Positions 1,493 to 64,000 of a stretch of 64,000 nucleotides of DNA are shown here, in pieces. This DNA is from an uncultured Opitutia bacterium (GTDB lineage Bacteria > Verrucomicrobiota > Verrucomicrobiia > Opitutales > Opitutaceae). How positions within the stretch are numbered: the stretch's first letter is position 1; each line of letters opens with the position of its first letter. Both the position numbers and the translations under genes were made by a program. The stretch lies in the NCBI GenBank assembly GCA_903859715.1, contig CAIONS010000062.1, positions 62,001 to 126,000 on the forward strand. The letters run 5' to 3'. Under the pieces are notes generated by a model that was not told where the DNA came from, did not search any database, and was given only the letters and a program-made list of their open reading frames with translations.

Positions 1493-1585
1493 CAGGCGAT
1501 AGGCTTTGGGCGGTAAGCTTTAGGGGTAGGGTGGGTCTTTGACCCGCCTCTGGCGCGCCGAGGGCAGGTCAGAGACCTGCCCTAC
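1493..1585. repeat. 7-nt-period arm plus GGTC palindromic words
   Basis: At 1493-1524 the sequence steps in 7-nt units GGCGATA, GGCTTTG, GGCGGTA, AGCTTTA. It is followed at 1524-1585 by two small palindromic words, GGGTCTTTGACCC and GGCAGGTCAGAGACCTGCC. The second type (GGGGTC...GACCCC followed by GCCCTAC) recurs at 3803, 14681, 32250, 32356 and 34040. It lies between the mannosidase start and the end of the upstream FAH gene, so it could also act as a stem-loop in their shared transcript. Confidence 0.6.
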
Positions 1586-1594
1586 TTCGAATCC

Positions 1595-2398
1595 TTAGAC
1601 CTTCTCGTTGATCACCGGGTTGGTGAGCGTGCCGATCTTCTCGATCTCGATGCTGACGGTGTCGCCAGCCTTCAGATAGATCGGGGGCTTGCGGGCGAAG
1701 CCGACGCCGTGTGGCGTGCCGGTGAGGATGACCGTGCCGGGCAGGAGGGTTTTGCTGCCGCTGAGGAATTCGATGAGCGTGGGCACGTCGAAGCACATGT
1801 CATTCGTGTTCCAGTCCTGCAGGGCGGTGCCGTTGAGGATGGTTTTGATGCCGAGGGTGTTGGGGTCGGGGATTTCGTCGCCGGTGACGAGCACCGGGCC
1901 GAGCGGGCAGAAGGTGTCGAAGCTCTTGCCCTGGCAGAACTGGCCGCCGCCCCAGCGGATCTGCCAGTCGCGGGCGGAGACGTCGTTGGCGCAGGTGTAG
2001 CCGAGGACGTAGTCGAGGGCCCGGGCCTTGGTGACGTTCTTGCAGCGCTTGCCGATGACGACGGCGAGCTCGCACTCGAAATCGACCTCGGTGCTGGCGA
2101 GGTGCTGCGGGATCTCGATCGGGTCGCCGGGATTCTGGAGCGCGTTGAGGCTCTTCATGAAGAGCATGGGCTGGGCGGGCACGCCCTTGCCGCCTTCCTC
2201 GGCGTGCTTCTTGTAGTTGAGGCCGATGGCGAGGATGCTGGACGGCACGAGGGGCACGAGCAGCTTGCCGGGCTTCACGGCGCGGTCAGTGACGCGGAAC
2301 TCGCCGAGGATGTCGCCGGTGATTTCACGGGCGGAGCCGTCGGCATGCAGCGCGGCGTAGGCGGGACCGGACGGGGTGAGGTGGCGGATGATTTTCAT
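1595..2398 (-). CDS. Fumarylacetoacetate hydrolase (FAH) family protein
   Basis: A 267-residue protein. I chose the start MKIIRHL at 2398 because the upstream in-frame codons lie in repeat-like DNA and add only a short non-conserved stretch. FAH-fold signatures include LAIGLNYKKHAEE near residue 57, the metal-binding acidic cluster in EVDFECELAVVIGK near residue 103, YTCANDVSARDWQ near residue 135, and the C-terminal TGTPHGVGFARKPP. The family includes 2-oxo-hepta-3-ene-dioate hydratases, acylpyruvases and fumarylpyruvate hydrolases, which act on C-C bonds or keto-enol substrates with Mg2+. The exact substrate is not inferable. It is in the same direction as the alpha-mannosidase, 119 bp upstream, and may share a transcript, but no pathway link is evident. 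Confidence 0.88.
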   Translation of the reverse strand: MKIIRHLTPSGPAYAALHADGSAREITGDILGEFRVTDRAVKPGKLLVPLVPSSILAIGLNYKKHAEEGGKGVPAQPMLFMKSLNALQNPGDPIEIPQHLASTEVDFECELAVVIGKRCKNVTKARALDYVLGYTCANDVSARDWQIRWGGGQFCQGKSFDTFCPLGPVLVTGDEIPDPNTLGIKTILNGTALQDWNTNDMCFDVPTLIEFLSGSKTLLPGTVILTGTPHGVGFARKPPIYLKAGDTVSIEIEKIGTLTNPVINEKV

Positions 2399-2664
2399 GG
2401 GGAAGGGAAGACAAGCTGTCGGCAATCAGCTCTCAGCTGTCAGCTTTATTTTGAGCTTATGACGACGGCGGATCCGGCCTCCGGTCCGGGAGGTGGAGCG
2501 GCTTGTCCCCAAGACGCTGGTTTGAAATGCCGGACGGAAACAGCGCGTTGAGGCAACGCGCTCCATCCAAGAAACAGGTAGGATTAGCTTGTCGCGCCGT
2601 AGCCTCGCACGGAGGCGGACGCCTCCGCCCTATATCAAACGCGAGCTTCACCGCGGCTCGCTCA
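2399..2664. repeat. Repeat-derived intergenic stretch
   Basis: At 2426-2455 a 7-nt-period arm reads ATCAGCT, CTCAGCT, GTCAGCT. It is followed by GC-rich words such as GGAGGCGGACGCCTCC (about 2611) and phrases resembling those at 3740-3790 (CCGTAGCCTCGC versus CCATAGCCTTGG). No convincing gene lies here. It looks like several overlapping short dispersed repeats. Confidence 0.45.
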
Positions 2665-2832
2665 TTAAGCCAGCTTGTGGAGCAGCTCCTTGCGCTCGGA
2701 GAAGATCTTGTCCGTGATGCGACGAAACTCCGCACCGTTCGTGGTAGACTTTCCGGACGCGGCGGCCGGCGCCGGCTTCTTGGCGATATAGGGAGCCTGG
2801 GACTCTGCGACTTTGAACGGTTTCTTCCGCAC
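2665..2832 (-). CDS. Possible small basic protein (55 aa), unknown
   Basis: Read from a GTG at 2832 to a TAA at 2665, this frame encodes a Lys/Ala-rich peptide with the segments KKPFKVAESQAPYIAKK and EFRRITDKIFSERKELLHKLA, the latter an amphipathic helix. The composition looks like real coding sequence, but no ATG or clear ribosome-binding site is visible. Immediately upstream on the same strand another frame (about 2886-2981) encodes ADDKPAAGSQAAPTKPGRK and ends in a stop. It resembles a disordered basic tail, so the two could be remnants of one gene split by a frameshift. I do not recognise a family. Confidence 0.35.
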   Translation of the reverse strand: MRKKPFKVAESQAPYIAKKPAPAAASGKSTTNGAEFRRITDKIFSERKELLHKLA

Positions 2833-3822: not shown

Positions 3823-3837
3823 GATTGGGCATGAGCG

Positions 3838-6714
<2,877 letters not shown>

Positions 6715-6817
6715 TCGCGGACGGTAGGCGAGGAGCGGGGCCGCGCAACCGCGATTTGGACCGGGGCGGCCAATTAAGGATTTGTTTCCGGGTCGAAAGC
6801 GGAGCTGTTTGTCCCTT

Positions 6818-6885
6818 GGAATCTGGAACTCAGGAACGCTGGAAAAAGGCATCGGATTGGTTCCAAAGTTCCTGAGTTCCAGATT
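6818..6885. repeat. Inverted 7-nt-period repeat upstream of gcvP
   Basis: AATCTGGAACTCAGGAAC at 6820-6837 is exactly mirrored by GTTCCTGAGTTCCAGATT at 6868-6885, an 18-bp perfect inverted repeat with a 30-nt centre. The arm steps in 7-nt units (GGAATCT, GGAACTC, AGGAACG). It lies between the divergent gcvP and nth genes. Confidence 0.85.
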
Positions 6886-6899
6886 ACCATCCGTTTCGA

Positions 6900-26227: not shown

Positions 26228-27127
26228 ATGTCTGCCGAACCCATCCGCTACTACGACCGCTACACCCAGACCGTGAAGACCGAGCAGGTCTATGGGGAGT
26301 CCTGGCTGCGGTTTGCCTATGAGAATCCGGCGGGGCGGTTTTTCGTGTGGCTGGCGGCGCGGCGGGTCTGGTTTTCGAAATGGTATGGCCGGAAGATGAA
26401 CAAGCGCGTGAGCGCGCAGCGGATTTTGCCGTTCATCACGACGTATAACATCGATGTCGATGAATTCGCCAAGTCGCCCTTCGACTACAAGAATTTCAAC
26501 GAGTTCTTCTACCGCGCGCTGAAACCCGAGGCCCGGCCGGTCGTGTCGGAAGAGCGGGTGGCCGTGCTGCCGGCCGACGGGCGGCACCTGGCGTTTCCCA
26601 ACGTCGACACCGCCGACGGGTTTTATGTGAAGGGGATGAAGTTCAGCCTGGAGGAATTGCTGGGCGACGCAGCGCTGGCGCAAACCTTCGCCGGCGGGGC
26701 GATGCTGATTTCGCGGCTGTGTCCGGTGGATTATCACCGGTTTCATTTCCCGGTCGCCGGCGTGCCGGGCGAGGCAAAGCTGATCAATGGCTGGCTGTAT
26801 TCGGTCAGTCCCGTCGCGCTGCGGCGCAACATCCGGTACATGGTCGAGAACAAGCGCATGCTCACACTGATCGAGTCCCCGCAGTTCGGCACGGTGGCGA
26901 TGCTAGAGGTGGGCGCGACGAATGTGGGCAGCATCCAGCAATCCCACATCCCGGGCCGGGTGGCGGTGAAGGGCGCGGAAAAGGGCTTGTTCGCCTTTGG
27001 TGGCTCCTGCGTGATCACACTCTTCCAGCGCGACCGCATCCGCTTCGAGGCGGACCTGGCCGCGCAGAGCGGGCAGTGCATCGAGACGTACGCGCGGATG
27101 GGGGACCGGCTGGGAGTCGCGACGTAA
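26228..27127 (+). CDS. psd: Phosphatidylserine decarboxylase proenzyme
   Basis: 299 residues from MSAEPIRYYDRYT; other in-frame ATGs upstream lie in non-conserved sequence. Family blocks: FNEFFYRALKPEARPV, VLPADGRHLAFPNV, LCPVDYHRFHFPVAG (catalytic His near residue 168) and the self-cleavage site FAFGGSCVITLFQ near residue 258, where the Ser becomes the pyruvoyl group. The motif is GGSC rather than LGST or GGSS. It converts phosphatidylserine to phosphatidylethanolamine at the inner membrane. No pssA is adjacent. A 7-nt-period arm begins a few bases after the stop codon. Confidence 0.93.
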   Translation: MSAEPIRYYDRYTQTVKTEQVYGESWLRFAYENPAGRFFVWLAARRVWFSKWYGRKMNKRVSAQRILPFITTYNIDVDEFAKSPFDYKNFNEFFYRALKPEARPVVSEERVAVLPADGRHLAFPNVDTADGFYVKGMKFSLEELLGDAALAQTFAGGAMLISRLCPVDYHRFHFPVAGVPGEAKLINGWLYSVSPVALRRNIRYMVENKRMLTLIESPQFGTVAMLEVGATNVGSIQQSHIPGRVAVKGAEKGLFAFGGSCVITLFQRDRIRFEADLAAQSGQCIETYARMGDRLGVAT

Positions 27128-27129
27128 AC

Positions 27130-27253
27130 GTCGCGACAAGTATCAAGTAACAAGGGGCAGGTATCAGGAATCCGACGCGCATACAAAGACCGCATGGAAT
27201 CGCCGCTTGCGTTCAGCACTCGAAAATCCGAAATCAAAAATCGAAAATCGAGT
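27130..27253. repeat. Two unpaired 7-nt-period arms
   Basis: 27134-27171 reads in 7-nt steps CAAGTAT, CAAGTAA, CAAGGGG, CAGGTAT (the word family of 55940-56072). 27218-27253 reads TCGAAAA, TCCGAAA, TCAAAAA, TCGAAAA (the word family of the gcvP and U32 inserts). They sit between psd and tRNA-Leu. Confidence 0.75.
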
Positions 27254-27260
27254 CACGCCC

Positions 27261-27342
27261 GCCCGGGTGGTGGAATTGGCAGACACGACGGTCTTAGAAG
27301 CCGTTGCCGCAAGGCTTGCAGGTTCGAGTCCTGTCCTGGGCA
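27261..27342 (+). tRNA. tRNA-Leu (anticodon TAG)
   Basis: The acceptor GCCCGGG pairs with CCTGGGC. The D arm is GGTGGAATTGGCAGACACG. The anticodon stem ACGGT/GCCGT encloses CTTAGAA (anticodon TAG). A short variable arm TTGCCGCAAGG (class II) and the T arm GCAGGTTCGAGTCCTGT follow. CCA is not encoded. Confidence 0.95.
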
Positions 27343-28959: not shown

Positions 28960-28968
28960 GGTTTTGTT

Positions 28969-29137
28969 TAACCACGAAGGACACGAAGAGCACGAAGTCG
29001 GAGCCCAATCCCCAAGCTTTTTTACAGGATGCAACAGAGAGAACAGAGGGAGAGTTTTCTCCATTCCCTCAGTTTCTTTCTGTAAGAAATGATTGGCTGG
29101 GTGTCGGGCCTTCGTGTGCTTCGTGACCTTGGTGATG
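28969..29137. repeat. Nested 9-nt-period inverted repeats
   Basis: Outer arm TAACCACGAAGGACACGAAG (28969 on) is mirrored at about 29109-29137 (CCTTCGTGTGCTTCGTGACC). Inner arm TTTTACAGGATGCAACAGAG (about 29019 on) is mirrored at about 29059-29088 (TCTCCATTCCCTCAG...). Each arm steps in 9 nt. The same two words are nested in the same order at 30641-30813 and 35735-35904. Confidence 0.9.
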
Positions 29138-29152
29138 AAAATCCGAAGCCTT

Positions 29153-30112: not shown

Positions 30113-30205
30113 GGAAGCTCGAAGATTGAAACCCGAAATCCGAAGGAAATCCATCCCATGCCGGAGGTTTTCAATTTCGGATTTCGAGCTTCAACCTTCG
30201 AGCTT
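30113..30205. repeat. Inverted 7-nt-period repeat
   Basis: The left arm steps GAAGCTC, GAAGATT, GAAACCC, GAAATCC (30114-30147) and is mirrored by TTTCAATTTCGGATTTCGAG... ending CTTCGAGCTTCC at 30207. It separates the divergent threonine dehydratase and glyoxalase genes. Confidence 0.85.
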
Positions 30206-30234
30206 CCAGCATAAGCCCTCGGGGCTTATGCTGG
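30206..30234 (+). promoter_or_regulatory. Perfect 13-bp hairpin ending 3 bp before a start codon
   Basis: CCAGCATAAGCCC (30206-30218) pairs with GGGCTTATGCTGG (30222-30234) across a 3-nt loop. It occupies the ribosome-binding region of the glyoxalase gene starting at 30238, so in the mRNA it would hide the translation start unless the gene is leaderless or the stem is opened. Confidence 0.6.
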
Positions 30235-35904: not shown

Positions 35905-37848
35905 CTAAGCCTTGTTGTCGATGGCGGTGCCCTCGAGGACGGCTTCTTCGCGCTCGCGGCGGAACTGGCTCGTGTAGAGTTCGTAGTAATGGCCGCGCCG
36001 CTGGAGCAGCTCGGCGTGCGTGCCGGATTCCTCGATGCGTCCCTTGGTGATGACAAGGATGCGGTCCGCCCGGCGGATCGTGCTCAGCCGGTGGGCGATG
36101 ACGAAGCTGATGCGGCCGGAGAAAACTGTCTCGAGTCCGCGCTGGATGAGCTGCTCGGTCTCGGTGTCGATCGAGGACGTGGCCTCATCCATCACGAAGA
36201 TCTGCGGCTGGGCGAGCAGGGCGCGCGCGAAGGAAAGCAGCTGGCGCTGGCCGGTGGAGAGACGGTTGCCGCCTTCGCCGACTTGCGAGTCATAACCCTG
36301 CTCCATCTGCCGGATGAAGCCGTCGGCGTTCACCAGCGCCGCCGCGGCCTCGACCTCCGCGTCGGTGGCGGTGAGGCGGCCGTAACGGATGTTCTCGCGG
36401 ACGGTGCCCTTGAAGAGATGCGGAGTCTGCAGGACGATGCCGAGCTGGGACTGCAGCCACGCGAGGGAGCGTTCGCGATAGTCGGTGCCATTGATCAAAA
36501 CCTCGCCGGAGACTGGCTCATAGAACCGGCAGACGAGCGAGACGATGGTGCTCTTGCCGCCGCCGGAAGGACCGACCAGCGCGATGGTCTCGCCGGCGCG
36601 GACGGTGAGGTTGAAATCGTGCAGCACGACGGGGCCGCTCTCGTATTTGAACGTGACGTTCCTGAACTCGAGGGTGTCGATCCGGCCGGGCAGGCCGTCC
36701 GGGGCGATAGCGGATTGCGGATACCGGATACCGGATAGTTCTGAATGGGGAACTGGCTTCAGGTTCTGGCTGTGAGCGTCTGGACTATCCGGTGTCCGCA
36801 ATCCGGTATCCGCAATACGCTGCCGGACGGCAGCGGAATCCCGGATCTTCGGTTCCGTCGCCAGCAGCCCCATGACGCGTTCGCCGGCGGCCTGGGCGCC
36901 CTGCATCTCGGTGAGGCGCTGGGCGAGTTGGTTGATGGGGTGGAAAAACTGGCCGGAGAAATTCACGAAGGCCACGAGCGTGCCGAGGCTCATCGCGCCG
37001 CTGGCGGTGAGATAGCCGCCGTGCCAGAGCGCGAGGCCGGAGGCAAGGGCACCGAGCGTCGTGACAATCGGGTAGTAAATGGAGGTCTGCCGGGCGTTGA
37101 GCACGGACGCGTCGAACATCTGCGTCGAGAGCGACTGGAATTCCGCCAGGTTGTCCGCCTCGCGCACGAGGGTCTTGGTCGTGCGGACACCCTGGATGGA
37201 CTCGTTGTAGCCGGCGGTGATCTGGGAGTTGAACTTCCGGATCTCCCGCGAGCTCAGAAGCATCTTTTTCTGGAAATACTTCGAGATGAGGGCGAGGGGC
37301 GGCACGACGCCGATGACGATCAGGCCGAGCTTCCAGTTCATGATGAGCAGGCTGACGGCGATCATGATCACATACGTGATGCCCCAGGTGATATCGAGGA
37401 GACCCCAGCCGATGACGCGCGCGAGCCGGTCGCAGTCGCTGGTGAGGCGCGAGATGAGCCAGCCGACGGGACGCGTGTCAAAGAAGGAGAATTCCAGCTC
37501 CTGCAGCTTGTCGAAGCTGTCGGTGCGGATGTCGTGGGCGAGGTGGTTGGAGAGGCTGCCGGCGAGGTTGATGAAGCTCCAGACGCAGCCGCTGAAGACG
37601 AAGGTGACGACCGCGTAGGCGGCGATGTAGCGGCCGAACGGGGCCGCGGCCCCGTCGCGGACGACGCCATCGATCACCCAGCGCGTGAGCTGGACGAAGA
37701 TGGCATCGCAGACGGCGAGGATGACCGCGGAGGCGAAGAGCGGGAAAAGCAGGCGCCGGTAGCGGAGGGCGCGGCGGAAAATCTTCAGCCACAGGCCGGT
37801 GTTGAGCCGGGACTGGAATTCATCCTCCTGATGGAATTGGGCGGACAT
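35905..37848 (-). CDS. ABC exporter half-transporter (TMD-NBD), second subunit
   Basis: 647 residues. The membrane domain (about 1-330) has six hydrophobic spans and NESIQGVRTTKTLVREADN. The NBD has Walker A VGPSGGGKST, signature RLSTGQRQLLSFARALL (LSTGQ instead of LSGGQ), Walker B IFVMDEATSSID and HRLSTI. It starts 3 bp after the previous gene's stop, so the pair forms a heterodimeric exporter of the MsbA/LmrCD type. The linker (about residues 343-382) is encoded by a complete 7-nt-period inverted repeat, 36704-36815. Substrate unknown: lipid, drug or peptide. Confidence 0.93.
   Translation of the reverse strand: MSAQFHQEDEFQSRLNTGLWLKIFRRALRYRRLLFPLFASAVILAVCDAIFVQLTRWVIDGVVRDGAAAPFGRYIAAYAVVTFVFSGCVWSFINLAGSLSNHLAHDIRTDSFDKLQELEFSFFDTRPVGWLISRLTSDCDRLARVIGWGLLDITWGITYVIMIAVSLLIMNWKLGLIVIGVVPPLALISKYFQKKMLLSSREIRKFNSQITAGYNESIQGVRTTKTLVREADNLAEFQSLSTQMFDASVLNARQTSIYYPIVTTLGALASGLALWHGGYLTASGAMSLGTLVAFVNFSGQFFHPINQLAQRLTEMQGAQAAGERVMGLLATEPKIRDSAAVRQRIADTGLRTPDSPDAHSQNLKPVPHSELSGIRYPQSAIAPDGLPGRIDTLEFRNVTFKYESGPVVLHDFNLTVRAGETIALVGPSGGGKSTIVSLVCRFYEPVSGEVLINGTDYRERSLAWLQSQLGIVLQTPHLFKGTVRENIRYGRLTATDAEVEAAAALVNADGFIRQMEQGYDSQVGEGGNRLSTGQRQLLSFARALLAQPQIFVMDEATSSIDTETEQLIQRGLETVFSGRISFVIAHRLSTIRRADRILVITKGRIEESGTHAELLQRRGHYYELYTSQFRREREEAVLEGTAIDNKA
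36704..36815 (-). repeat. Complete inverted 7-nt-period repeat inside an ABC exporter gene
   Basis: GCGGATTGCGGATACCGGAT (36709 on) is mirrored by the segment 36782-36814 (ACTATCCGGTGTCCGCAATC...). The arms step in 7 nt (CCGGATA, CCGGATT, GCGGATA). Both arms and centre are in frame, encoding RIADTGLRTPDSPDAHS and HSELSGIRYPQSAIA. Confidence 0.85.
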
Positions 37849-39702: not shown

Positions 39703-40251
39703 GGAGGGACTAAAGTTCGAAGGTGGAAATCCGAAATTCGAAAGAAGTGCGGAAAAGGGGGCGAGAACGGAGGAAAAGACGAAATGGGGAAAACAAAAAA
39801 CCCGCTCGGGGGAGAGCGGGTGGGAAAACACGGGGATTTTCCGGGGCCCGCTCGATGCGGCGGGCTGGAAACCGGCTCAGGTGGCCGGGGAGCCCGCGTG
39901 CGCGACGAGGAGAATGGGATAAAAATCGGCGCGGGTCATCATGAAGTGCGGGGGTTCGGCACGCAGAAGAAGAGGCCGCGCCGCGGCAGGCAAGCGAGAA
40001 TTTGAAAGGCCTCGGGCGAACATCCAACACCGAACATCGAACGTCCAACTTTGAAGTCCGATCCAGTGCCAGGCGCTATCAAGCCATCCGATCCACCGTT
40101 GGCCCGGACGGGATTCGTCGCTTGAGCGCCAAAAGTCGGGCGTTCAACGTGGGGTGCTTTCCGGGATTCAGCCTGGCATTGCGCTCCGGGGCCGGTCGCA
40201 CGGAAACTTCCTAAGAAATCCGCCGCTCGCCCGTTTCATCCGCAGAACCTC
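39703..40251. other. Divergent intergenic region with repeat arms and a leader stem
   Basis: About 550 bp. It has two 7-nt-period arms: 39714-39748 (TTCGAAG, GTGGAAA, TCCGAAA, TTCGAAA) and 40018-40056 (GAACATC, CAACACC, GAACATC, GAACGTC). It also has a stem-loop with T-run on the minus strand (39793-39821). Promoters for the exporter operon (minus) and the ECF sigma gene (plus) must lie here. I cannot assign -35/-10 boxes. Confidence 0.55.
39793..39821 (-). terminator. Rho-independent-type terminator or attenuator in the exporter leader
   Basis: On the minus strand ACCCGCTC-TCCCCC-GAGCGGGT is followed by TTTTTTGTTTT. It lies 90 bp upstream of the exporter operon on the same strand, where no gene precedes it, so it may work as an attenuator in the 5' leader. 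An upstream 20-codon frame (about 39880-39942, MTRADFYPILLVAHAG) is a weak leader-peptide candidate. Confidence 0.6.
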
Positions 40252-40803: not shown

Positions 40804-42954
40804 ATGAATTTTTCCAAGTTTCCCCCTGATGATCCGAGACTGACCGCCTACGCCCTGGGCGAGCTGGAGGGCGCCGAGCGGGCGGCGGTCGAGGCGGCGC
40901 TGCGCGACGATCCGGCGGTGCGGGCAGTGGTGGAAGAGATCCGGGCCACGGCAGCGCTGCTCTCGTCGGCGCTGGCGGAGGAAGCGGCCGCAGATTTGCC
41001 AACGGGCGCGCCGGCACCGCGAGAGAAAGCCGCCATTATCCACGGCAGCGATTACCGGAAACTCGATGGCGGCCCGCTGGGCAAGCTGATCACGTTCCCG
41101 CGGTTTTATTATGTGGTGGGCGGACTGGCGGCGGCATGCTTTGCGGTGGTGGTGGCATTGCACCCGCCGGAGCCGAGGCCGGCGCCCAAGGTTTATGCGG
41201 AAGTGGCGCTGGCTCCGGCAAAGGAGGCCAGGGCGATGGAGGCGTCGATGGACACTGCGGAGAAAAAAGAGGCTGCCCGGCCGCAGCCCGCGGAGCCGAT
41301 GCCGGCCCCGATGGCATTGCCGCCGCCACCCAGTGTGATGACTGCAGACAGCGCTGTTCCGCAGGCGGTCATGAGTGGAGTGCAGGACCAGCGGCGCGAT
41401 GAGACCAGCCGGCGGATGCTGGCGGTAAAGGCCAAGGACGCCCGCGCGAAACTGGAGACCCTGGCGTTCAACGAGGAAAAGCCGGTTTCCAGCTTTGCAC
41501 GCAAGCGAGTGGATGTTTCCGGACAAGCGACGGAGGCCGGCATGGAGATCCAGAGAGTGCCGGCCAACCTGCCGGCGGCCAACACCGAGGCCTACGCCTA
41601 TGTGCGCGACAACGATTTCGTAGGTGCGGCGGAAAATCTGTTGTCCACGTTTTCCGTCGACGTGGACACGGCGAGCTACGCCAACCTGCGGCGGTTCATC
41701 CAGGGCGGGCGGCTGCCGCCGTCGGACGCGGTGCGGGTCGAGGAGCTGGTGAATTATTTCCCGTATCATTATTCGCCGCCGGGCGGGGATGGGCCGTTCG
41801 CGGCGTCGATGGAAGTCGCGGATGCGCCGTGGGCGCCGACGCACCGGTTGGTGCGCATCGGGCTGAAGGGTCGCGAGGTGTCGACGGCGACCCGGGCGGC
41901 GGCGAACCTGGTGTTTCTGATCGACGTGTCAGGTTCGATGAACGAGCCCACTAAGCTGCCGTTGGTGAAGGAGGCGATGCGGTTGCTCGTCGGCAAGCTG
42001 CGGCCGGATGACCGGGTGGCCATCGTGGTCTATGCCGGAGCCAGCGGGCTGGCGCTGCCGTCCACGCCCGTGGCGAAAGCGCCGGAGATCCTGGGAGCGC
42101 TGGACGCACTGACGCCGGGCGGAGCGACGAACGGCGCGCTGGGGCTCCAGCTGGCCTATGATATCGCGAAGGCGAATTTTGTCCCGAGCGGCGTGAACCG
42201 CGTGATCCTGTGCACGGACGGGGATTTCAATGTAGGCGTGACGAGTGAGGGCGAACTCACGCGGCTCATCCAGGAAAAAGCAAAGTCGGGGGTGTTCCTG
42301 ACGGCGCTCGGCTTCGGAATGGGCAATTACAAGGATGCGACGCTCGAGCGCCTCGCGGACCAGGGGAACGGCAACTACGGTTACATCGACACGCGCCGTG
42401 AGGCCGAGAAGTTGCTCGTCGAGCAGGTGAACGGCACGTTGGTGACGATCGCGAAGGACGTGAAGCTCCAGGTGGAGTTCAATCCCGCGCAGGTCGCGAG
42501 CTACCGGCTGATCGGCTATGAAGACCGGCTGCTGAAGAAGGAGGATTTCAACAACGACGCCGTGGACGCTGGCGAGATCGGGGCGGGGCACACGGTGACG
42601 GCGCTTTATGAGATTGTGCCGTCAGAAAATTCGAAACCCGAAACCCGAAATCCGAAACCGGCAGCATTGCTGACGCTCAAGGTGCGGTACAAGGAGCCGG
42701 CGGGAACCGTAAGCCTGAAACGGGAGTTTCCGCTGACGGATGACGGGGCGCGGTTTGCGGCCGCAAGTGCGGACTTCAAGTTCGCGGCGGCGGTGGCGGA
42801 GTTCGGGATGATCCTGCGCGACTCACCGCACAAGGGCACGGGTACGCTGGATCAGGTCATCGCTTGGGCGGAGGCCGGGACAGACAGCGATGCCGGAGGC
42901 TACCGCGGTGAGTTCGTCGAGCTGGTGCGTCAGGCGGAAGTGCTGATGCGGTAG
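40804..42954 (+). CDS. Anti-sigma-like / von Willebrand factor A (YfbK-type) membrane protein
   Basis: 716 residues. Residues 1-50 (DPRLTAYALGELEGAERAAV...) match the N-terminal helices of membrane anti-sigma factors, without the zinc Cys/His. One TM helix follows (about 98-118, YYVVGGLAAACFAVVVAL), then a Pro/Ala/Lys linker. Next come a YfbK N-domain (NLLSTFSVDVDTASYANLRRF, VRVEELVNYFPYHY), a vWA domain with MIDAS DVSGSM near residue 374 and TDGDFNVG, and a C-terminal DUF3520-like part. It is coupled to the ECF gene. Residues about 607-621 (SENSKPETRNPKPAA) are encoded by a 7-nt-period repeat arm. Confidence 0.88.
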   Translation: MNFSKFPPDDPRLTAYALGELEGAERAAVEAALRDDPAVRAVVEEIRATAALLSSALAEEAAADLPTGAPAPREKAAIIHGSDYRKLDGGPLGKLITFPRFYYVVGGLAAACFAVVVALHPPEPRPAPKVYAEVALAPAKEARAMEASMDTAEKKEAARPQPAEPMPAPMALPPPPSVMTADSAVPQAVMSGVQDQRRDETSRRMLAVKAKDARAKLETLAFNEEKPVSSFARKRVDVSGQATEAGMEIQRVPANLPAANTEAYAYVRDNDFVGAAENLLSTFSVDVDTASYANLRRFIQGGRLPPSDAVRVEELVNYFPYHYSPPGGDGPFAASMEVADAPWAPTHRLVRIGLKGREVSTATRAAANLVFLIDVSGSMNEPTKLPLVKEAMRLLVGKLRPDDRVAIVVYAGASGLALPSTPVAKAPEILGALDALTPGGATNGALGLQLAYDIAKANFVPSGVNRVILCTDGDFNVGVTSEGELTRLIQEKAKSGVFLTALGFGMGNYKDATLERLADQGNGNYGYIDTRREAEKLLVEQVNGTLVTIAKDVKLQVEFNPAQVASYRLIGYEDRLLKKEDFNNDAVDAGEIGAGHTVTALYEIVPSENSKPETRNPKPAALLTLKVRYKEPAGTVSLKREFPLTDDGARFAAASADFKFAAAVAEFGMILRDSPHKGTGTLDQVIAWAEAGTDSDAGGYRGEFVELVRQAEVLMR
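42622..42664 (+). repeat. 7-nt-period repeat arm inside the vWA gene
   Basis: TTCGAAA, CCCGAAA, CCCGAAA, TCCGAAA, CC in uninterrupted 7-nt steps. It is in frame and encodes NSKPETRNPKP between the strands TALYEIVP and LLTLKVRYKE. Confidence 0.82.
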
Positions 42955-42984: not shown

Positions 42985-43070
42985 TTAACCACGAAGGTCA
43001 CGAAGCGCACGAAGGCCAAGCCCAAGCCTTGGAATTTTAACCACGGATTTCACGGATTCGATCTGGATAA
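42985..43070. repeat. Two unpaired 9-nt-period arms at the end of a truncated gene
   Basis: TTAACCACGAAGGTCACGAA at 42985 (word of the 30641 element) and TTTTAACCACGGATTTCACG at about 43035 (left arm of the 7643 element). Only left arms are present. They supply the last 29 codons and the stop codon of the minus-strand beta-strand repeat gene. Confidence 0.85.
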
Positions 43071-46089: not shown

Positions 46090-46784
<695 letters not shown>

Positions 46785-46788
<4 letters not shown>

Positions 46789-46881
46789 CATGGGGCGTGT
46801 GACCTGTGACCAGCCTTCAATCCCCATGTTCAACTGACCCCATTCCGATGCCCCGTCACATGTCACACGTCACACGTCACA
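46785..46881. repeat. Inverted 7-nt-period repeat between ATPase and permease
   Basis: GTGACATGGGGCGTGTGACC (46785 on) is mirrored by GTCACATGTCACACGTCACA (46855 on), stepping GTCACAC, GTCACAC, GTCAC. It overlaps the ybbA stop codon and lies inside an operon, so it does not fully stop transcription. Confidence 0.85.
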
Positions 46882-46888
46882 ACCCGGT

Positions 46889-49522
46889 ATGAGCTTCATC
46901 CTGAAGATGGCCTGGCGGGATTCGCGGGCGTCGCGGCGGCGGCTGGCGCTGTTTTCGCTTTCCATCGTGCTCGGCATCGCTGCGCTCACGGGCATCGGGT
47001 CGCTTGGGGAGAATCTCCGCCGCACCGTCGAGCTGCAGACAAAGTCCCTGCTGGGCTCCGACCTCGCGGTCACGTCGCGCAAGCCGTTCGACGAGGCGGC
47101 CATGAAGTATTTTCACAGTCTCGGCGGTGAGCTCTCGACCGAGGTGGCGTTCACCTCGCAGCTTTATTTCGTGAAGCGGCCGGGCGAACGGAAACTGGTG
47201 CAGGTGGTCGCGATGGACGGCAAATTCCCCTTCTACGGTGAGGCCGTCACTGCGCCTAACGACGCACTGGCCCGCCTCGCCGATGGCCAATCCGCCGTGC
47301 TCGAAGAGACGCTGTTTGTGCAGTACAACGTGCAGATCGGCGACGAGGTCCGGCTGGGGGCCAGCACGTTCAAGGTGGTGGGCATGCTGAAAAAGATCCC
47401 GGGTGACGCCGCGATCGTGGCGCTGTTTTCGCCGCGCGTGTACATCTCGCCGGCTGCGCTGGCGGGCACGGGGTTGCTCAAGAAGGACGGGTTCTCCCGT
47501 CATCGCGTGCATTTCAAGCTGCCGCCTGCGACGGATGCCGAGGCCCTCGCGAAGGCGATGAAGGAAAAATTCAAGACTGCGCGCTACCAGTTCGACACGG
47601 TCGAGGAGCGCAAGCGCCAGCTGGGCACGATGCTCAAGGACGTTTACTCGTTCCTCAGCCTCATCGGGTTTGTCGCGCTGTTCCTCGGCGCGGTGGGCGT
47701 GGCGAGCGCGATCCATGTCTACATCCGGCAAAAGATCGCGACGGTCGCGGTGCTGCGCTGTCTCGGGGCGAGTGGCCGGACCGGCTTTGCAATCTACCTC
47801 GTGCAGGGCGTGGGCCTCGGCGTGCTCGGCTCGCTGCTCGGCGCGGCGCTGGGCGTGGCGGTGCAGTTCGTGCTGCCGGTGGTGCTGAAGGATTTCCTGC
47901 CGTTTGAGGTGGAGCTGTTCATCTCGTGGGTGTCGCTCGCCAAGGGCGCCTCGGCGGGGCTGGTGATCTGCGTGCTGTTCACGCTGCTGCCGTTGCTGGC
48001 CGTACGACGCGTATCGCCGCTGGTCGCGCTGCGTTCGGCGCTGGGCGAGAGCACGCGGCTGGATCCGCTGACCCCGGTCGTCTACGCCGCGATTGCGGCG
48101 GCGGTGCTGGGCTTCGCGATCCTGCAGACGGGGCACTGGCAGACGGGGCTGGGGTTCACGCTGATGATGGCGCTGGGCTTCGGGCTGCTGGGCGGCATGG
48201 CGAAGCTCGTCACATGGGCGGCGAAGCGCTTCGTGCCGCGCAAGCCGCTCAGCTACGTCGTGCGGCAGGGCCTCGCCAACCTGCACCGGCCCAACAACCG
48301 CACGGTGCTGCTGCTGCTTTCGCTGGGACTGGGGACGTTCCTCATGATCAACCTCGTGCTCGTCCGCGCGACGATGGTGGACAAAATCATGGGCGTGGGC
48401 GCGGGGGCGCGGCCCAACCTGATGTTTTTCGATGTGCAGGATGACCAGTTTCCCAAGCTGGAGAAAATCCTCCGCGAGAACGGCACGCCCATCCTGGTCT
48501 CGGCGCCGATCGTCACGATGAAGATCGAATCGCTCAAGGGCCGCGCGGTCGCGGACCTGCTGAAGGACGACACGAAAGTCATGACGCGCCCCGAAGGCGG
48601 CGCGCCGGGTGGGCCGGGCGGCGGTAGCGCGCCACTGCGGGCGGGCGCGGCGCGCGATGCGGCCCGGGAAGCGCGGGAGAGCGGGCGCATCCCGGCGTGG
48701 ACACTCACGCGCGAATATCGCTCCAGCTACCGCGGCCAGCTCGATGAAACCGAAAAGGTTTCCTCCGGGGAATGGATCGGCCGCGCCGCACCCGGTGAGG
48801 CGCGGGTGCCGATTTCCGTCGAGGAAGGTCTGGCCAAGGATCTCCAGGTCGGGCTCGGCGACGAAATCGTCTTCGACGTGCAGGGGGTGCCGATGCGGAC
48901 CTATGTCGCGAGCCTGCGCGCGGTCGAATGGCAGCGGATGCAGCCCAATTTCTTCGTACTGTTTCCCGAGGGCGTGCTGGAGGCCGCGCCGAAGACCTTT
49001 GCGGCCGCGGCGCGCGCGGCCACGCCGGCCGACGCCGCACGGGCGCAGCAGGCCGTGGCGCGCGAGCTGCCCGGCATCTCGGCGATCGACCTCGCGCTGA
49101 TCCTGCAGACGTTCGACGGCATTTTCTCGAAGGTGGCGTTTGTGATCACGTTCATGGCGGGCTTCACGGTGGTGACAGGCATCGTGGTGCTGGCGGGCGC
49201 GATTCTCACGGGCCGCTTCCAGCGCATTCGCGAGACCGTGCTGCTCCGCACGCTCGGTGCGACACGTCGCCAGCTCATGCAGATCCAGCTGGTCGAGTAC
49301 GCCGTGCTGGGCGTGCTGGCCACCCTGACGGGCGGCGGGCTTGCGGTGCTGGGCAACGCCCTGTTGGCGAAGTTTCTATTTAAGACGGCGGTTTCGCTGC
49401 CGGTGCCCGCTTTGCTTGGTTCAATGGCCACGGCGGTGGCAGTCACGCTGGTAACCGGCCTGCTCGCGAATCGTGGCGTGGCGGACCATCCGCCGCTCGA
49501 AGTGCTGCGGCAGGAGACGTAG
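46889..49522 (+). CDS. ybbP: ABC transporter permease, YbbP-type (two FtsX domains)
   Basis: 877 residues. An N-terminal TM helix (LALFSLSIVLGIAALTGIGS) precedes a large periplasmic region. Two FtsX permease modules follow (LIGFVALFLGAVGVASAIHV... and VITFMAGFTVVTGIVVLAGA...). The typical VAVLRCLGASGRTGFAIYLV and LLRTLGATRRQLMQIQLVEY coupling-helix blocks are present. With YbbA it forms a MacB-like machine acting on envelope lipids or proteins rather than a channel. A low-complexity Gly/Pro/Arg stretch near residues 565-595 is non-conserved. Confidence 0.92.
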   Translation: MSFILKMAWRDSRASRRRLALFSLSIVLGIAALTGIGSLGENLRRTVELQTKSLLGSDLAVTSRKPFDEAAMKYFHSLGGELSTEVAFTSQLYFVKRPGERKLVQVVAMDGKFPFYGEAVTAPNDALARLADGQSAVLEETLFVQYNVQIGDEVRLGASTFKVVGMLKKIPGDAAIVALFSPRVYISPAALAGTGLLKKDGFSRHRVHFKLPPATDAEALAKAMKEKFKTARYQFDTVEERKRQLGTMLKDVYSFLSLIGFVALFLGAVGVASAIHVYIRQKIATVAVLRCLGASGRTGFAIYLVQGVGLGVLGSLLGAALGVAVQFVLPVVLKDFLPFEVELFISWVSLAKGASAGLVICVLFTLLPLLAVRRVSPLVALRSALGESTRLDPLTPVVYAAIAAAVLGFAILQTGHWQTGLGFTLMMALGFGLLGGMAKLVTWAAKRFVPRKPLSYVVRQGLANLHRPNNRTVLLLLSLGLGTFLMINLVLVRATMVDKIMGVGAGARPNLMFFDVQDDQFPKLEKILRENGTPILVSAPIVTMKIESLKGRAVADLLKDDTKVMTRPEGGAPGGPGGGSAPLRAGAARDAAREARESGRIPAWTLTREYRSSYRGQLDETEKVSSGEWIGRAAPGEARVPISVEEGLAKDLQVGLGDEIVFDVQGVPMRTYVASLRAVEWQRMQPNFFVLFPEGVLEAAPKTFAAAARAATPADAARAQQAVARELPGISAIDLALILQTFDGIFSKVAFVITFMAGFTVVTGIVVLAGAILTGRFQRIRETVLLRTLGATRRQLMQIQLVEYAVLGVLATLTGGGLAVLGNALLAKFLFKTAVSLPVPALLGSMATAVAVTLVTGLLANRGVADHPPLEVLRQET

Positions 49523-49549
49523 CATAGCGTGGCGGGGCTACGCTATGCA

Positions 49550-49632
49550 GTGACTTGTGCCGTGTGACATGTGACCAGTAGGAGGGCCGGGGTGGGTTTG
49601 AACTTGTCACTCGTCACCGGTCACTCGTCACT
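49550..49632. repeat. Inverted 7-nt-period repeat
   Basis: GTGACTTGTGCCGTGTGACA (49550 on) is mirrored by GTCACTCGTCACCGGTCACT (49606 on), stepping GTCACTC, GTCACCG, GTCACTC, GTCACTT. It lies between ybbP and the SlyD gene. Confidence 0.82.
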
Positions 49633-49638
49633 TGGCGC

Positions 49639-50121
49639 ATGAGCGCCACTCGCGTCGTCACCTTTCACTATACCTTACGCGACCCGGCGGGCCGCATCCT
49701 CGACACCTCGGCGGGCGGCGAGCCCATCACTTATCTTGAGGGCGCGGGGCAGATCATCGACGGGCTCGATTCGCGCCTGCGCCGGGCGGAAGCCGGGGCG
49801 AAGCAGCGGGTGCAGGTGCCGGCGGCGGAGGCTTATGGCGAACACGACGCTGCGCAGGTGCAGCAGGTGAAACGCGCCGTGCTGCCGATCGATGGGGAGC
49901 TGGCGCTGGGCGCGCAGTTCCAGGCGGGGCCGGATCGCAATGCCCCGGTGGTCACGGTGGTGGCGATCGACGGCGAGCAGGTGACGCTGGACGCCAATCA
50001 CCCGCTGGCCGGCGTCGACCTGGAGTTCGAGGTCGAGATCGTGACCGTGCGCGGGGCGACACCGGAGGAGCTGAGTCACGGGCATGCGCACGGCAATGAC
50101 GGAACCGGGCATTGCCAGTAA
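49639..50121 (+). CDS. slyD: FKBP-type peptidyl-prolyl isomerase, SlyD-like
   Basis: 160 residues. The FKBP domain (VVTFHYTLRDPAGRILDTSA, YLEGAGQIIDGLDSRLRRAE, AAEAYGEHDAAQVQQVKRAV) carries the insert-in-flap domain (about 70-125). It closes with LDANHPLAGVDLEFEVEIV. The His-rich tail HGHAHGNDGTGHCQ fits the metal-binding tail of SlyD, though shorter than in E. coli. It acts as a folding helper and possible Ni donor. Confidence 0.9.
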   Translation: MSATRVVTFHYTLRDPAGRILDTSAGGEPITYLEGAGQIIDGLDSRLRRAEAGAKQRVQVPAAEAYGEHDAAQVQQVKRAVLPIDGELALGAQFQAGPDRNAPVVTVVAIDGEQVTLDANHPLAGVDLEFEVEIVTVRGATPEELSHGHAHGNDGTGHCQ

Positions 50122-54682: not shown

Positions 54683-55924
<1,242 letters not shown>

Positions 55925-55939
55925 CGCGGTGCGCCGCGT

Positions 55940-56072
55940 TACAAGTTTCAAGGGACAAGGAACAAGTGCCAAGGAAGTCCGAAGCCTGAGAATACTCCGC
56001 TTTCATGGCTAGGTCCGTCTATCGACCGTTCGGCCTTCACTTGGAACTGGTTCCTTGTCTCTTGCTACTTGC
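55940..56072. repeat. Inverted 7-nt-period repeat between convergent genes
   Basis: The left arm steps TCAAGGG, ACAAGGA, ACAAGTG, CCAAGGA (55945-55975). It is mirrored by CTTGGAACTGGTTCCTTGTC (56040 on) with an inserted palindrome GGAACTGGTTCC. It lies between the convergent permease and adenylate-kinase-like genes. Confidence 0.82.
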
Positions 56073-56087
56073 CGCCTCGCGGCCCCT

Positions 56088-62207: not shown

Positions 62208-62212
62208 GAGGT

Positions 62213-62265
62213 GGAGCTTTAGGCGGTAAGCGGTAGGCTTTGGGCGGAATCCGGAAAGTTGAGAG
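62213..62265. repeat. 7-nt-period repeat arm
   Basis: GCTTTAG, GCGGTAA, GCGGTAG, GCTTTGG, GCGGAAT in 7-nt steps (62216-62250). It is the same word family as 1493-1524 at the other end of the window and is unpaired. Confidence 0.75.
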
Positions 62266-62324
62266 CTGTAAAATGAGCTTGGGGCTGATCGGGCAGGATT
62301 AAGGCCTGGGCCGAGGGCTTGCTG

Positions 62325-64000
62325 CTAGCGCTTCCCCTCCATCTGGCCGCGGGTGACGCCGAGTTGATTGAGTAATTTCAGTTCCTGCCAAAGCTCGCCG
62401 CCGGTGATTTCGCCGCGGATCAACTGATGATAGCGGGTCAGGGTGCGGCTGACCTCGGCGGCATCCTCGTTGACGAACTCCACCCGGAAACTGCGCGCCC
62501 CGAGTTCAATGAGGCGGGCGATGTATTCGGCACCCGTCTGGGCGCGGTTGTTGAAGACGGTGTTGCGGCAGCCGGCGTCGGCCCGAAGCGGCAGCTCGGC
62601 GCCGACGCGATCGCGCAGGGCGACGCGATGCGTGTCACACGGCCGGCCGCAGTCGCGGTAGTCCTTTCCGGTCGAGAGGAACGCGCAGAACACGCAGTGC
62701 TCCATGTGAAACATCGGCATGTGCTGGTGCACGGTGAGGTCGAACCATGTCCCGGGCGCGGCCTGCAGGAGCGCCTCGAGCTGGGTGATGTTCAGGTCGT
62801 AACTAGCGGTCACGCGCTCCAGCCCATGGTGCCGGAGAAAATAATCCGCGGTCAGCGGGTTGGCGACGTTGAGCGAGAAATCGCCGCGCTTCCGGTCGCC
62901 GGCGAAAAACGCGAGGTGGTCATAATTGCGGACCAGATAACCGTCCGCCTCGCAGGAGCGCACCTGCTTCAGGATCCACTCCTCCCCGGGCTTGAAGATA
63001 CGCGGCGGCGCGACCCAGATGCTGCCGGGATTTTCGATTTTGGATTCCTGATTTTGGATTTCGGAGGATTGCAGAGCCCGGAAGCGCGCCACGGCGTCGC
63101 GGTAAAACTTGGGGTTCTCGAACTCGCAATAGAGGGTCCGGGCACCGGCGGACCACGCGGCGTCGAGCTGCTCCGGCAACCGGATGACCGCGATCAACTC
63201 GGGTGCGCGGTCCTCCTTCGGTTGGGTTGCGAATTTCTCCCTTTGATACTCGAGCGAGTTCCACCGCTGGGGCGTGGCGCGCAGCTGCTCGAGCGCCGCG
63301 GCGGATTCACGCCGGAGGCGATTGAGCTCACTCACCGGCAGGATGACGTCGCCCTCGAGAAAAGAGCGCAGGCCGCCCAGCGTGAACGGCGTGCTGCCCA
63401 GCCGGCCGAGCTGCTCATGCAGGCGGGCGGGGGTGAGCGGCTGTTTGTCTGCGGGGGCGAGCGGAAGCGCGGATTCCAGCTTAACGAAATGGCCTCGACC
63501 ATCGTTGGCGATGAGGGTGAGCGGCGTGCCCGCATGACCGTGCACTTCAAACGTGATGGCGCGTTGGAACCGGATCTTGTCGCCTTCAAATGAGGAGCGG
63601 ACATCGCGGTCTAGGGCGGGATCGTTGGTTTTCCACACCAACTGGCCTGCCCGCACTCGGCGCCAGTCGATGTCGCCGTCGCCGAAACGGAGCGTGGTTT
63701 CGCCATTCCCGGAGGCGGCGACCTGATAGATGCGTCCGCCTTCCTCGCGCTCATCGGGCTTGCCGGCGTCGAAGACAATACCGTCGCCCGGCTTGAGCGG
63801 AGCGACAGGGCGGAGCGTCACACTTTCATTGGCCACGCGGATAACCTCGCCCAGGAAAACACCGCGCTTGGTGCCGAACCGCGCGTGCGCGAGCTCCTGG
63901 TTGTTGATACCGCGGAACCAGCCGGTGTAGAGGCCGCGCGAAAAACTCATCTCCAGTTCGTAGCGGGCGGTCTGCGGCTCAAACTTGGGAACGGCGGTGC
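62325..64000 (-). CDS. U32 peptidase family protein (RlhA/DUF3656-like), runs off the right edge
   Basis: At least 558 codons; the frame continues beyond 64000 (ARYELEMSFSRGLYTGWF), so the start is outside. The C-terminal U32 part has NPLTADYFLRHHGLERVTAS and MPMFHMEHCVFCAFLSTGKD, then RDCGRPCDTHRVALRDRVG. Four cysteines (HC-x2-C, C-x3-C) are a possible 4Fe-4S site, as in U32 rRNA/tRNA hydroxylation proteins. The layout (a DUF3656-like middle beta domain followed by a second U32 half) resembles RlhA, the 23S rRNA hydroxylase factor. Oddity: a loop read SSEIQNQESKIENPGS is encoded by a 7-nt-period arm (63029-63071). Confidence 0.85.
   Translation of the reverse strand, partial: TAVPKFEPQTARYELEMSFSRGLYTGWFRGINNQELAHARFGTKRGVFLGEVIRVANESVTLRPVAPLKPGDGIVFDAGKPDEREEGGRIYQVAASGNGETTLRFGDGDIDWRRVRAGQLVWKTNDPALDRDVRSSFEGDKIRFQRAITFEVHGHAGTPLTLIANDGRGHFVKLESALPLAPADKQPLTPARLHEQLGRLGSTPFTLGGLRSFLEGDVILPVSELNRLRRESAAALEQLRATPQRWNSLEYQREKFATQPKEDRAPELIAVIRLPEQLDAAWSAGARTLYCEFENPKFYRDAVARFRALQSSEIQNQESKIENPGSIWVAPPRIFKPGEEWILKQVRSCEADGYLVRNYDHLAFFAGDRKRGDFSLNVANPLTADYFLRHHGLERVTASYDLNITQLEALLQAAPGTWFDLTVHQHMPMFHMEHCVFCAFLSTGKDYRDCGRPCDTHRVALRDRVGAELPLRADAGCRNTVFNNRAQTGAEYIARLIELGARSFRVEFVNEDAAEVSRTLTRYHQLIRGEITGGELWQELKLLNQLGVTRGQMEGKR
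63029..63071 (-). repeat. 7-nt-period repeat arm inside the U32 gene
   Basis: On the coding strand: TCCGAAA, TCCAAAA, TCAGGAA, TCCAAAA, TCGAAAA, TCC. It encodes SEIQNQESKIENPG. The peptide SKIENP is shared with the insert in GcvP. Confidence 0.82.

What the first reader, a model, noticed from the sequence alone, without database searches (positions are those of the whole stretch)
1493..63071. A dense family of mirrored repeats with a 7-nt period
Seventeen loci carry arms whose sequence steps in exactly 7 nt: 1493, 2426, 4489, 6818, 27134, 27218, 30113, 31230, 36704, 39714, 40018, 42622, 46785, 49550, 55940, 62213 and 63029. The words differ by locus (GTGACGA, TCCGAAA, CCGGATA, ACAAGGA, GAACATC, GCGGTAG, AGCTGTC), yet the 7-nt step is constant. 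Where a second arm exists it is the reverse complement of the first around a unique centre. Known 7-nt repeats (cyanobacterial STRR, from general knowledge) are direct tandems. The combination of short period, many unrelated words and mirrored arms looks undescribed to me. It suggests one copying mechanism or recognition protein that cares about spacing more than sequence.
Basis: partly seen in the sequence, partly recalled or inferred. Interest (0 to 1): 0.85.

Follow-up and report, generated by a model that had tools for sequence, protein, structure and literature searches.

The report
Seven-base mirrored mobile hairpins with S23 gene
Short mirrored DNA hairpins built from seven-base steps litter this bacterial genome, and the same kind of hairpin in many other bacteria encloses a small gene of unknown function (S23, the four-helix-bundle protein), which suggests a widespread and little-noticed kind of mobile DNA.

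Summary
The 7-nt signal is real and far above chance. Comparison with congeners shows what it is. In relatives, mirrored 7-nt arms enclose a gene of the S23 / "23S rRNA-intervening-sequence protein" / "four helix bundle protein" family (PF05635, TIGR02436). Of 130 S23 loci scored, 106 have period-7 mirrored arms (70 of 80 from a similarity-ranked scan across phyla) and 7 have period 8 or 6; displaced flanks gave 0 of 59. Of 12 plasmid S23 genes read, 11 cyanobacterial, 10 have them. In this genome S23 genes carry three of the window's words: CGGATNN, CAAGNNN, CGAAANN. Word and S23 protein covary. Within arms, 5 of 7 bases are conserved and 2 diverge fast. Three elements are present here and absent from the sister species. 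Likeliest reading: dispersed relatives of the 23S rRNA IVS, mostly ORF-less, bound by their S23 barrel and moved without a transposase of their own. No PF00078 reverse transcriptase was found in 12 genomes of the genus. How they move is not shown. Mirrored heptamers (Xanthomonas) and heptamers in the Coxiella IVS are in print; my searches found no paper that joins them.

The parts
1493..1530 (+). single degenerate 7-nt array (GGCGATA GGCTTTG GGCGGTA AGCTTTA), AGC-type word, beside another hairpin (about 1526-1598)
   Evidence: weak
2415..2449 (+). single 7-nt array, TCAGCNN word (a common word at S23 loci of the LTSQxRRA clade)
4483..4520 (+). single 7-nt array, GATTTTC word, inside a glycine cleavage P-protein gene (3838-6852, - strand)
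6815..6890 (.). two-armed hairpin element, GGAAC word, steps of 7/8/8
   Evidence: RNA fold z -8.7
27116..27137 (.). perfect 10-bp fold-back hairpin GTCGCGACGT-AA-ACGTCGCGAC that runs into the array
27134..27165 (+). 7-nt array, CAAGNNN word (the word of S23 locus L239 of the same genome)
27218..27258 (+). 7-nt array, CGAAANN word, directly upstream of a tRNA gene (27261-27342)
30113..30212 (.). two-armed element, CGAAANN word (the word of S23 locus L240 of the same genome); a 13-bp fold-back abuts its 3' end
   Evidence: z -9.9
31232..31267 (+). single GTGACNN array inside a DNA-glycosylase (OGG) gene (30832-31749, - strand)
36702..36822 (.). two-armed CGGATNN element between the two Pfam domains of an ABC transporter gene (35905-37848, - strand); same word as S23 locus L238
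39716..39742 (+). short CGAAA array, identical in the sister species
40015..40055 (+). GAACATC array; not seen at the same site in G004, G009 and G011
42623..42666 (+). CGAAANN array inside a YfbK-like vWA gene (40804-42954)
46784..46889 (.). two-armed GTGACNN element between an ABC ATPase gene and a MacB/FtsX gene; the orthologous site holds a PDDEXK_3 gene in 9-nt arms in G002, G004, G008, G009, G010
49522..49548 (.). fold-back hairpin (12-bp stem, 1 mismatch, 3-nt loop) abutting the next element
49548..49641 (.). two-armed GTGACNN element
55921..55942 (.). fold-back hairpin (9-bp stem, 4-nt loop) running into the next element
55937..56077 (.). two-armed CAAGNNN element; the orthologous site holds an S23 gene in ATTTTCG arms in G004 and G011 and is empty in G001
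62213..62250 (+). single GGCGGTA/AGCGGTA array, degenerate
63028..63065 (+). single GATTTTC array inside a U32 peptidase/collagenase gene (62325-63950, - strand)

Best explanation
The arrays are the arms of small mobile DNA elements. Each complete element is a hairpin made of two mirrored runs of heptads (five conserved bases + two variable) around a unique centre. The full form carries in its centre one gene for an S23 / 23S-rRNA-IVP four-helix-bundle protein; most copies, and every copy looked at in the window, lack it, and many are single arms. They are dispersed relatives of the 'intervening sequences' known from 23S rRNA genes, or share their origin. Shown here: the anatomy, the association with S23 in many phyla, covariation of arm word and protein, faster change of the spacer than of the core, presence/absence between sister species, no PF00078 reverse transcriptase in the genus. 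Inferred: the S23 barrel (five chains in both solved crystal structures, fold like the DGR protein Avd) grips the phased five-base cores of its own element, as single-stranded DNA hairpin or RNA stem, protects or delivers it, and lets host replication and repair enzymes copy it into nicks or breaks; fold-back hairpins that abut some arrays would be traces of self-primed synthesis. My confidence: about 0.9 that arms and S23 gene form one unit, about 0.8 that the unit is or was mobile, about 0.3 for this route.
For: Mirrored period-7 arms around S23 genes: relatives 13 of 21 and phylum 23 of 29 (full-length loci), genome contigs 70 of 80 (69 of 80 with the slightly different flanks). Controls at period 7: displaced flanks 0 of 59, 0 of 21 and 0 of 29; random centres 1 of 120 and 0 of 120. 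Plasmids 10 of 12 (no control run on these). S23 loci of this genome carry window words: L238 CGGATNN, L239 CAAGNNN, L240 CGAAANN. Word by clade, sorted by motif: LTSQxRRA clade AGY 50, GAWT 1, other 18 (n 69); GTS clade AGY 2, GAWT 13, other 3 (n 18); neither clade AGY 5, GAWT 4, other 10 (n 19). Mantel r 0.45 overall, 0.45 within the Verrucomicrobiota sets. Core 21 of 250 against spacer 25 of 98 differences to the sister species; 0 of 2000 random controls as extreme. Own-only elements with empty sites in G005 at L024:9765, L029:16389, L030:17492. Site 55937: S23 element in G004 and G011, ORF-less element here, empty in G001. Fold: 2gsc, 2rld (E 1e-8 to 6e-4), then Avd 4dwl/8ube (TM 0.8, E 0.07-0.25). 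No PF00078 match in 12 of 12 genomes of the genus. Coxiella IVS: tandem GACAGAT heptamers before S23 and a 28-bp terminal stem (PMC4990558).
Against: No S23 remnant lies in the centre of the arrays of this genome: tblastn found none in 416,680 bases, and a profile only the known weak locus in L040, about 0.8 kb from an array (the tblastn finds L237-L239 as positive controls). So ORF-less copies are not visible deletion derivatives. G015 has arrays but no PF05635 match, and 3 of 7 S23-positive genomes sampled had no array in 40-80 kb. 32 of 51 elements are spanned by alignment to the sister species, so movement is slow. No target-site duplication was seen at the three clean insertions. 24 of 130 S23 loci lack period-7 arms, 17 of them any; so do L236 and L241 of this genome. 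Two window words (GTGAC, GAACATC) have no S23 partner found in this genome. Word-protein covariation is also expected if arms and gene are merely inherited together. No enzyme is identified.
Confidence: 0.72

Rival explanations
1. Ordinary simple-sequence repeats: DNA polymerase slips in 7-nt steps (the proposal of Mrazek 2007 as told in MacGregor 2015) and arrays arise anywhere.
For: Heptamers are reported as the commonest long-SSR class in most genomes surveyed (PMC4679880 section 3); copy number varies in the Coxiella IVS.
Against: Slippage gives neither mirrored arms with one inward polarity nor S23 in the centre, and it predicts no 5+2 pattern of divergence. The 11 window arms alignable to G005 differ by substitutions, not by 7-nt steps, though alignable arms are a favourable choice.
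Confidence: 0.08
2. Regulatory sites: the heptad hairpins are operators or RNA stems bound by S23 (or another RNA/DNA-binding protein), kept for function, not mobile.
For: Core conservation; RNA hairpins stronger than shuffles (z -2.4 to -9.9 in 5 of 5 folded); MacGregor proposes a post-transcriptional role for TAACTGA repeats.
Against: Arrays inside the coding sequence of a glycine cleavage P-protein, an ABC transporter, a U32 peptidase, a vWA protein and a glycosylase; different words at the same site in different species, and empty sites; own-only elements.
Confidence: 0.1
3. Non-autonomous elements moved by a known enzyme (RAYT/Y1 transposase, a DDE transposase, or the PDDEXK_3 nuclease of the elements with 8-10-nt arms), with S23 as passenger.
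For: The genome holds 2 Y1_Tnp matches and 5 PDDEXK_3 genes; in relatives PDDEXK_3 genes are enclosed by 8/9/10-nt mirrored arms in 10 of 25 full loci, a parallel architecture at the same sites.
Against: No lag-7 array lies in the fetched loci of either Y1 match. The arm word tracks S23. S23 matches no enzyme fold above the threshold.
Confidence: 0.18
4. Retro-element: S23 acts like Avd with a reverse transcriptase, and the stem-loop RNA is copied into DNA.
For: S23 has the Avd fold and one S23 protein has a weak Avd profile hit, below that model's cut-off (E 1.4e-4); Avd/PF05635 homology is in print (PMC10053308).
Against: No PF00078 match in this genome or in its 11 congeners searched, 0 of 12, although arrays are dense in several of them.
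Confidence: 0.04

Closest known systems
23S rRNA intervening sequences (IVS) with S23 ORF (Coxiella, Leptospira; Warrier et al. 2016, PMC4990558)
   Same: Same protein family in the centre of the full form, terminal inverted repeats, a stable stem-loop, and tandem heptamers before the ORF (GACAGAT in Coxiella; arms with that word flank S23 in L181, a similar word in L353).
   Different: Here the elements lie outside rRNA genes (no rRNA match in the window), between and inside protein genes, in large numbers, mostly without ORF; whole arms are phased heptads.
Heptameric repeats of Xanthomonas and Nostoc (GGGAATC, GGGGAYT; Rehm et al. 2015, PMC4692102, passages read)
   Same: Five conserved + two variable positions; pairs of arrays in convergent orientation.
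   Different: Read there as G-quadruplex SSRs; in the passages read no S23 link is made; one word per genome studied.
TAACTGA direct repeats of Beggiatoaceae, cyanobacteria and Bacteroidetes (MacGregor 2015, PMC4679880)
   Same: 7-nt arrays; TAACTGA is the reverse complement of TCAGTTA, which occurs in S23 arms here (L190, L204; TCAGTNN also in L185).
   Different: One word, nearly all direct; read as a translational regulatory site.
Cyanobacterial STRR heptamers (recalled; Calothrix heptamers are mentioned in PMC4692102)
   Same: Short 7-nt tandem arrays in a group where plasmid S23 genes carry mirrored heptads.
   Different: Described as direct tandems (recalled); not compared base by base here.
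Avd of diversity-generating retroelements
   Same: Fold (4dwl, TM 0.80, E 0.07).
   Different: No PF00078 reverse transcriptase in this genus; template and variable repeats were not looked for.

Membership tests
23S rRNA IVS elements | located in a 23S rRNA gene | tested here: not met
   Rfam finds only two tRNAs in the window
23S rRNA IVS elements | S23/IVP ORF inside | tested here: inconclusive
   met in elements of this genome (L237-L240) and of relatives; no S23 match in the window
23S rRNA IVS elements | complementary ends forming a stem | tested here: met
   5 of 5 two-armed window elements folded (5 of 6 given); 26 two-armed elements listed
23S rRNA IVS elements | excised by RNase III | not testable with these tools
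   needs an experiment
REP/RAYT system | Y1 transposase gene flanked by the repeats | tested here: not met
   2 Y1_Tnp matches, no lag-7 array in their loci
Diversity-generating retroelement | reverse transcriptase (PF00078) | tested here: not met
   0 of 12 genomes of the genus
MITE of a DDE transposon | terminal inverted repeats | tested here: met
   two-armed elements; single arms do not have them
MITE of a DDE transposon | target-site duplication | tested here: inconclusive
   none seen by eye at three clean insertions; the genomes differ by about 14%
MITE of a DDE transposon | parent element with transposase | tested here: inconclusive
   the gene-bearing form found carries S23; DDE transposase genes were not searched for
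Heptameric SSR | tandem 7-nt units | tested here: met
Heptameric SSR | copy-number variation by slippage | tested here: inconclusive
   no 7-nt length change in the 11 arms aligned to the sister species, but arms that do not align were not counted

The most novel reading that the evidence does not exclude
A distinct class of mobile DNA, spread over many bacterial phyla: each lineage of an Avd-like S23 barrel reads its own seven-base phased hairpin through the five-base cores, and spreads hairpins with or without its gene by hairpin-primed repair synthesis, with neither transposase nor reverse transcriptase. The heptamer repeats of cyanobacteria, Beggiatoaceae and Xanthomonas and the 23S rRNA IVS would all be its remains.
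Probability: 0.3. Interest if true: 0.93.

Novelty: new variant of a known kind. Interest (0 to 1): 0.82.

Why it matters
It would give a context and a testable function to a widespread protein family of unknown function (S23 / four helix bundle protein). It would also explain heptameric repeats noted in several bacterial groups, and turn the rRNA IVS from an oddity into one case of a general mobile element. If S23 really reads a 7-nt phased hairpin, that is a new way for a protein to recognise nucleic acid.

Tried and rejected
RAYT partner: rejected, no array by the two Y1 matches. PF00078 reverse transcriptase: rejected for this genus. ORF-less copies as deletion derivatives with gene remnants: no remnant found in array centres. 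S23 as a strict predictor of array density across genomes: only a trend, 15 lag-7 places in 400,000 bases of 7 S23-positive genomes (three of them with none) against 5 in 372,297 bases of 10 S23-negative ones; one of the 5 is a run of N and three are in G015, a member of the family without S23. One search ranked loci by similarity to one clade and kept the best 80 of 580, so they are not a random sample. My first motif-based look at the GTS clade located too few genes (period 7 in 14 of 30) and was replaced by hit coordinates. There, loci cut by contig ends were dropped in two sets (9 of 30 and 1 of 30) but kept in the set of 80. The sample of 20 congeneric loci (13 with period 7) overlaps in part with that. 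Of 36 plasmid records with a hit, 12 were read. At period 9 the mirrored-arm test has a high background (11 of 120 and 6 of 120 random centres), so the 9-nt claim for PF13366 rests mostly on reading the sequences.

Papers: PMC4679880 abstract and sections 3, 8, 10, 24; PMC4990558 abstract, passages, section 16; PMC4692102, PMC4853749, PMC8934634, PMC10910872, PMC10053308 passages only; PMC11270868 searched for five terms, none present. That no paper joins heptad arms to S23 rests, over an open-access library only, and on the top of a longer list. Mrazek 2007 and the primary STRR papers were not read.
Full report
Observation. TRF and a lag-7 scan confirm the arrays. In the window 13 places reach 15 of 21 lag-7 matches, against a mean of 0.9 (maximum 4) in 20 dinucleotide shuffles. 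Lags divisible by 3 are raised too, as expected of coding sequence; of the rest only 7 and 14 stand out. In 416,680 bases of this genome (6,000 read twice) lag 7 gives 44 places at >=16 of 21, lags 8 and 10 six each. The stretches off contig C62 were mostly picked because they hold or neighbour GTGAC arrays or a Y1 match, so the fairer figure is that of contig C62: 20 places in 161,345 bases, against 0 to 2 at the control lags. The words recur (GTGACNN, CAAGNNN, CGGATNN, CGAAANN, GAACATC, GGGAGAT, GGCGGTA). A stricter pairing rule finds 51 elements in the same bases, 14 of them two-armed, and 12 two-armed ones among 56 in relatives. In that list the GTGAC-type pairs read GTGAC inward, none the other way.

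Neighbours at the same sites. Ten congeners were tried at 12 window elements; many pairs could not be aligned. At 55937, G001 is empty, G009 has a GTGTTAG element, G005 another hairpin, and G004 and G011 have 7-nt ATTTTCG arms around a gene. At 46784, G002, G004, G008, G009 and G010 have 9-nt arms (such as CACGGAATA) around a gene. Family searches identify these genes as PF05635 (S23, 23S_rRNA_IVP) and PF13366 (PDDEXK_3, also called GxxExxY, a name recalled). At 36704 and 42622, both inside genes, the words or their spacers differ between species, and the length differences read are all multiples of 3.

S23 association. First test: in 30 PF05635 loci of relatives, mirrored arms of period 7 in 13, period 8 in 4, period 9 in 1; in 30 PF13366 loci, period 8 in 4, 9 in 8, 10 in 3, 6 in 1; random centres give period 7 in 1 of 120 and 0 of 120, but period 9 in 11 and 6. 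Second test: an S23 alignment was scanned against one genome per species; the best 80 of 580 were kept, with titles naming at least twelve phyla. 69 of 80 had period-7 mirrored arms within 400 bp, 1 had period 6, none had 5 or 8-12; displaced flanks gave 0 of 59 at period 7 (Fisher p 2.6e-28). With gene coordinates: 13 of 21 full-length loci of relatives (plus 4 with period 8), 23 of 29 of the phylum set (plus 2 with period 8), 70 of 80 (plus 1 with period 6), in all 106 of 130 with period 7. Displaced flanks gave none at period 7 in the sets of 21 and 29. Twelve plasmid loci read out of 36 hits: 10 with period 7 and 1 with period 8, including S23 genes set between cas6 and cas4 and between ribonucleotide reductase genes.

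Same words, same genome. Of six S23 matches of this genome (one below the family cut-off), L237 has GGGAGAA arms, L238 CGGATNN, L239 CAAGNNN, L240 CGAAANN; L236 scored only weakly at period 8 and L241, the one below the cut-off, not at all. Three of these words are words of ORF-less elements in the window. GTGAC and GAACATC have no S23 partner found here.

Word and protein. Sorted by a motif, S23 proteins of the LTSQxRRA clade have AGC/AGT words (50 of 69; GATT/GAAT-like 1, other 18); the GTS clade has GATT/GAAT-like words (13 of 18; AGY 2, other 3); 19 loci fit neither clade (AGY 5, GATT-like 4, other 10) (Fisher on the two classes of the two clades p 7e-11). Protein and word similarity correlate: r 0.45 over 105 loci (highest of 300 permutations 0.11), 0.28 among the cross-phylum loci (0.16), 0.45 within the Verrucomicrobiota sets (0.19). 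This fits a protein that reads the word, and equally arms and gene inherited together.

Five plus two. Window and G005 are 86.2% identical over 29,177 aligned bases. In 11 arms the five core positions differ at 21 of 250 and the two spacer positions at 25 of 98 (Fisher p 7e-5). The same procedure on random segments reached that gap in 0 of 2000 trials. The two arms of one element match, as reverse complements, at 82% of core and 61% of spacer positions (26 elements), which suggests that arms start as near-palindromes and spacers drift. Five window elements fold into long stems.

Mobility. Against G005, 32 of 51 elements are spanned by an alignment, 8 break it, 11 are unaligned. Of the 8, three are own-only with an empty site in G005 (L024:9765, L029:16389, L030:17492), one is the exchanged site 55937, one (L025:18016) is broken by another insertion, and three are partial. 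No target duplication was seen at the three. Hairpins of at least 9 bp abut array ends at 21 of 214 ends against 10 of 629 shifted controls; at L024:9765 the hairpin copies the flank and is not seen in G005. I read these as possible traces of fold-back synthesis; terminators are the alternative.

Protein. The model of an S23 protein (pLDDT 97) matches 2gsc and 2rld, five chains each, and then Avd (4dwl, 8ube; TM about 0.8, E 0.07-0.25). PF00078 has no match in the 12 genomes of the genus.

Prior work. Coxiella's IVS has tandem GACAGAT heptamers before its S23 ORF, varying in number among strains, and a 28-bp terminal stem. L181 (Lewinella) has S23 arms with that word. MacGregor's TAACTGA is the reverse complement of TCAGTTA, found in S23 arms (L190, L204). 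Rehm et al. report (GGGANTN)n arrays with convergent pairs in Xanthomonas. Ten literature searches, several seen only as the top of a list, gave no paper that joins these.

Verdict. The unit is well supported, mobility is supported by presence/absence, the enzyme and route are unknown.

Noticed in passing
window 28967-29139, 30645-30813, 35735-35899, partial at 42990: Three copies of a composite mirrored element: outer 9-nt arms (CACGAAGGA) and inner mirrored arms (TTTTACAGGAGATAACGGAG / CTGTAAAA type).
   Followed up: partly
relatives of window 46784-46886; loci L122-L151: PDDEXK_3 (GxxExxY) genes lie inside mirrored arms of 8, 9 or 10-nt period in 10 of 25 full loci (displaced control 2 at period 9): a parallel element class with its own periods.
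   Followed up: partly
27116-27137, 49522-49548, 55921-55942; L024:9765, L081:14619, L273:2439: Hairpins copied from the flank abut some arrays, up to an 18-bp perfect stem that includes the end of the neighbouring gene.
   Followed up: partly
L025:5056-5266: Own-only mirrored element GTCATCCTGAGCGAAG...CTTCGCTCAGGATGAC with a 9-bp direct repeat CCGACGTTT at its ends; G005 has the empty site.
   Followed up: no
L040:2884, L040:15737, L264:14237, L270:18628, L258:6264: Further mirrored families differ between the sister species: GGGCGGGCACGTCCCGTGCCCGC, GTGGAGCGCGTTG-like, GTAGCGCAGGCATCCTGCC.
   Followed up: no
L345 (Pseudanabaena plasmid), L354 (Anabaena plasmid), L355 (Picosynechococcus plasmid): S23 genes sit inside CRISPR operons (between cas6 and cas4, or between cas10 and a Cmr3-family gene), still with mirrored 7- or 8-nt arms.
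   Followed up: no
L092, L120 (G031): S23 genes of one genome with 8-nt arms (GGCACAAA), so the period can change within the family.
   Followed up: no
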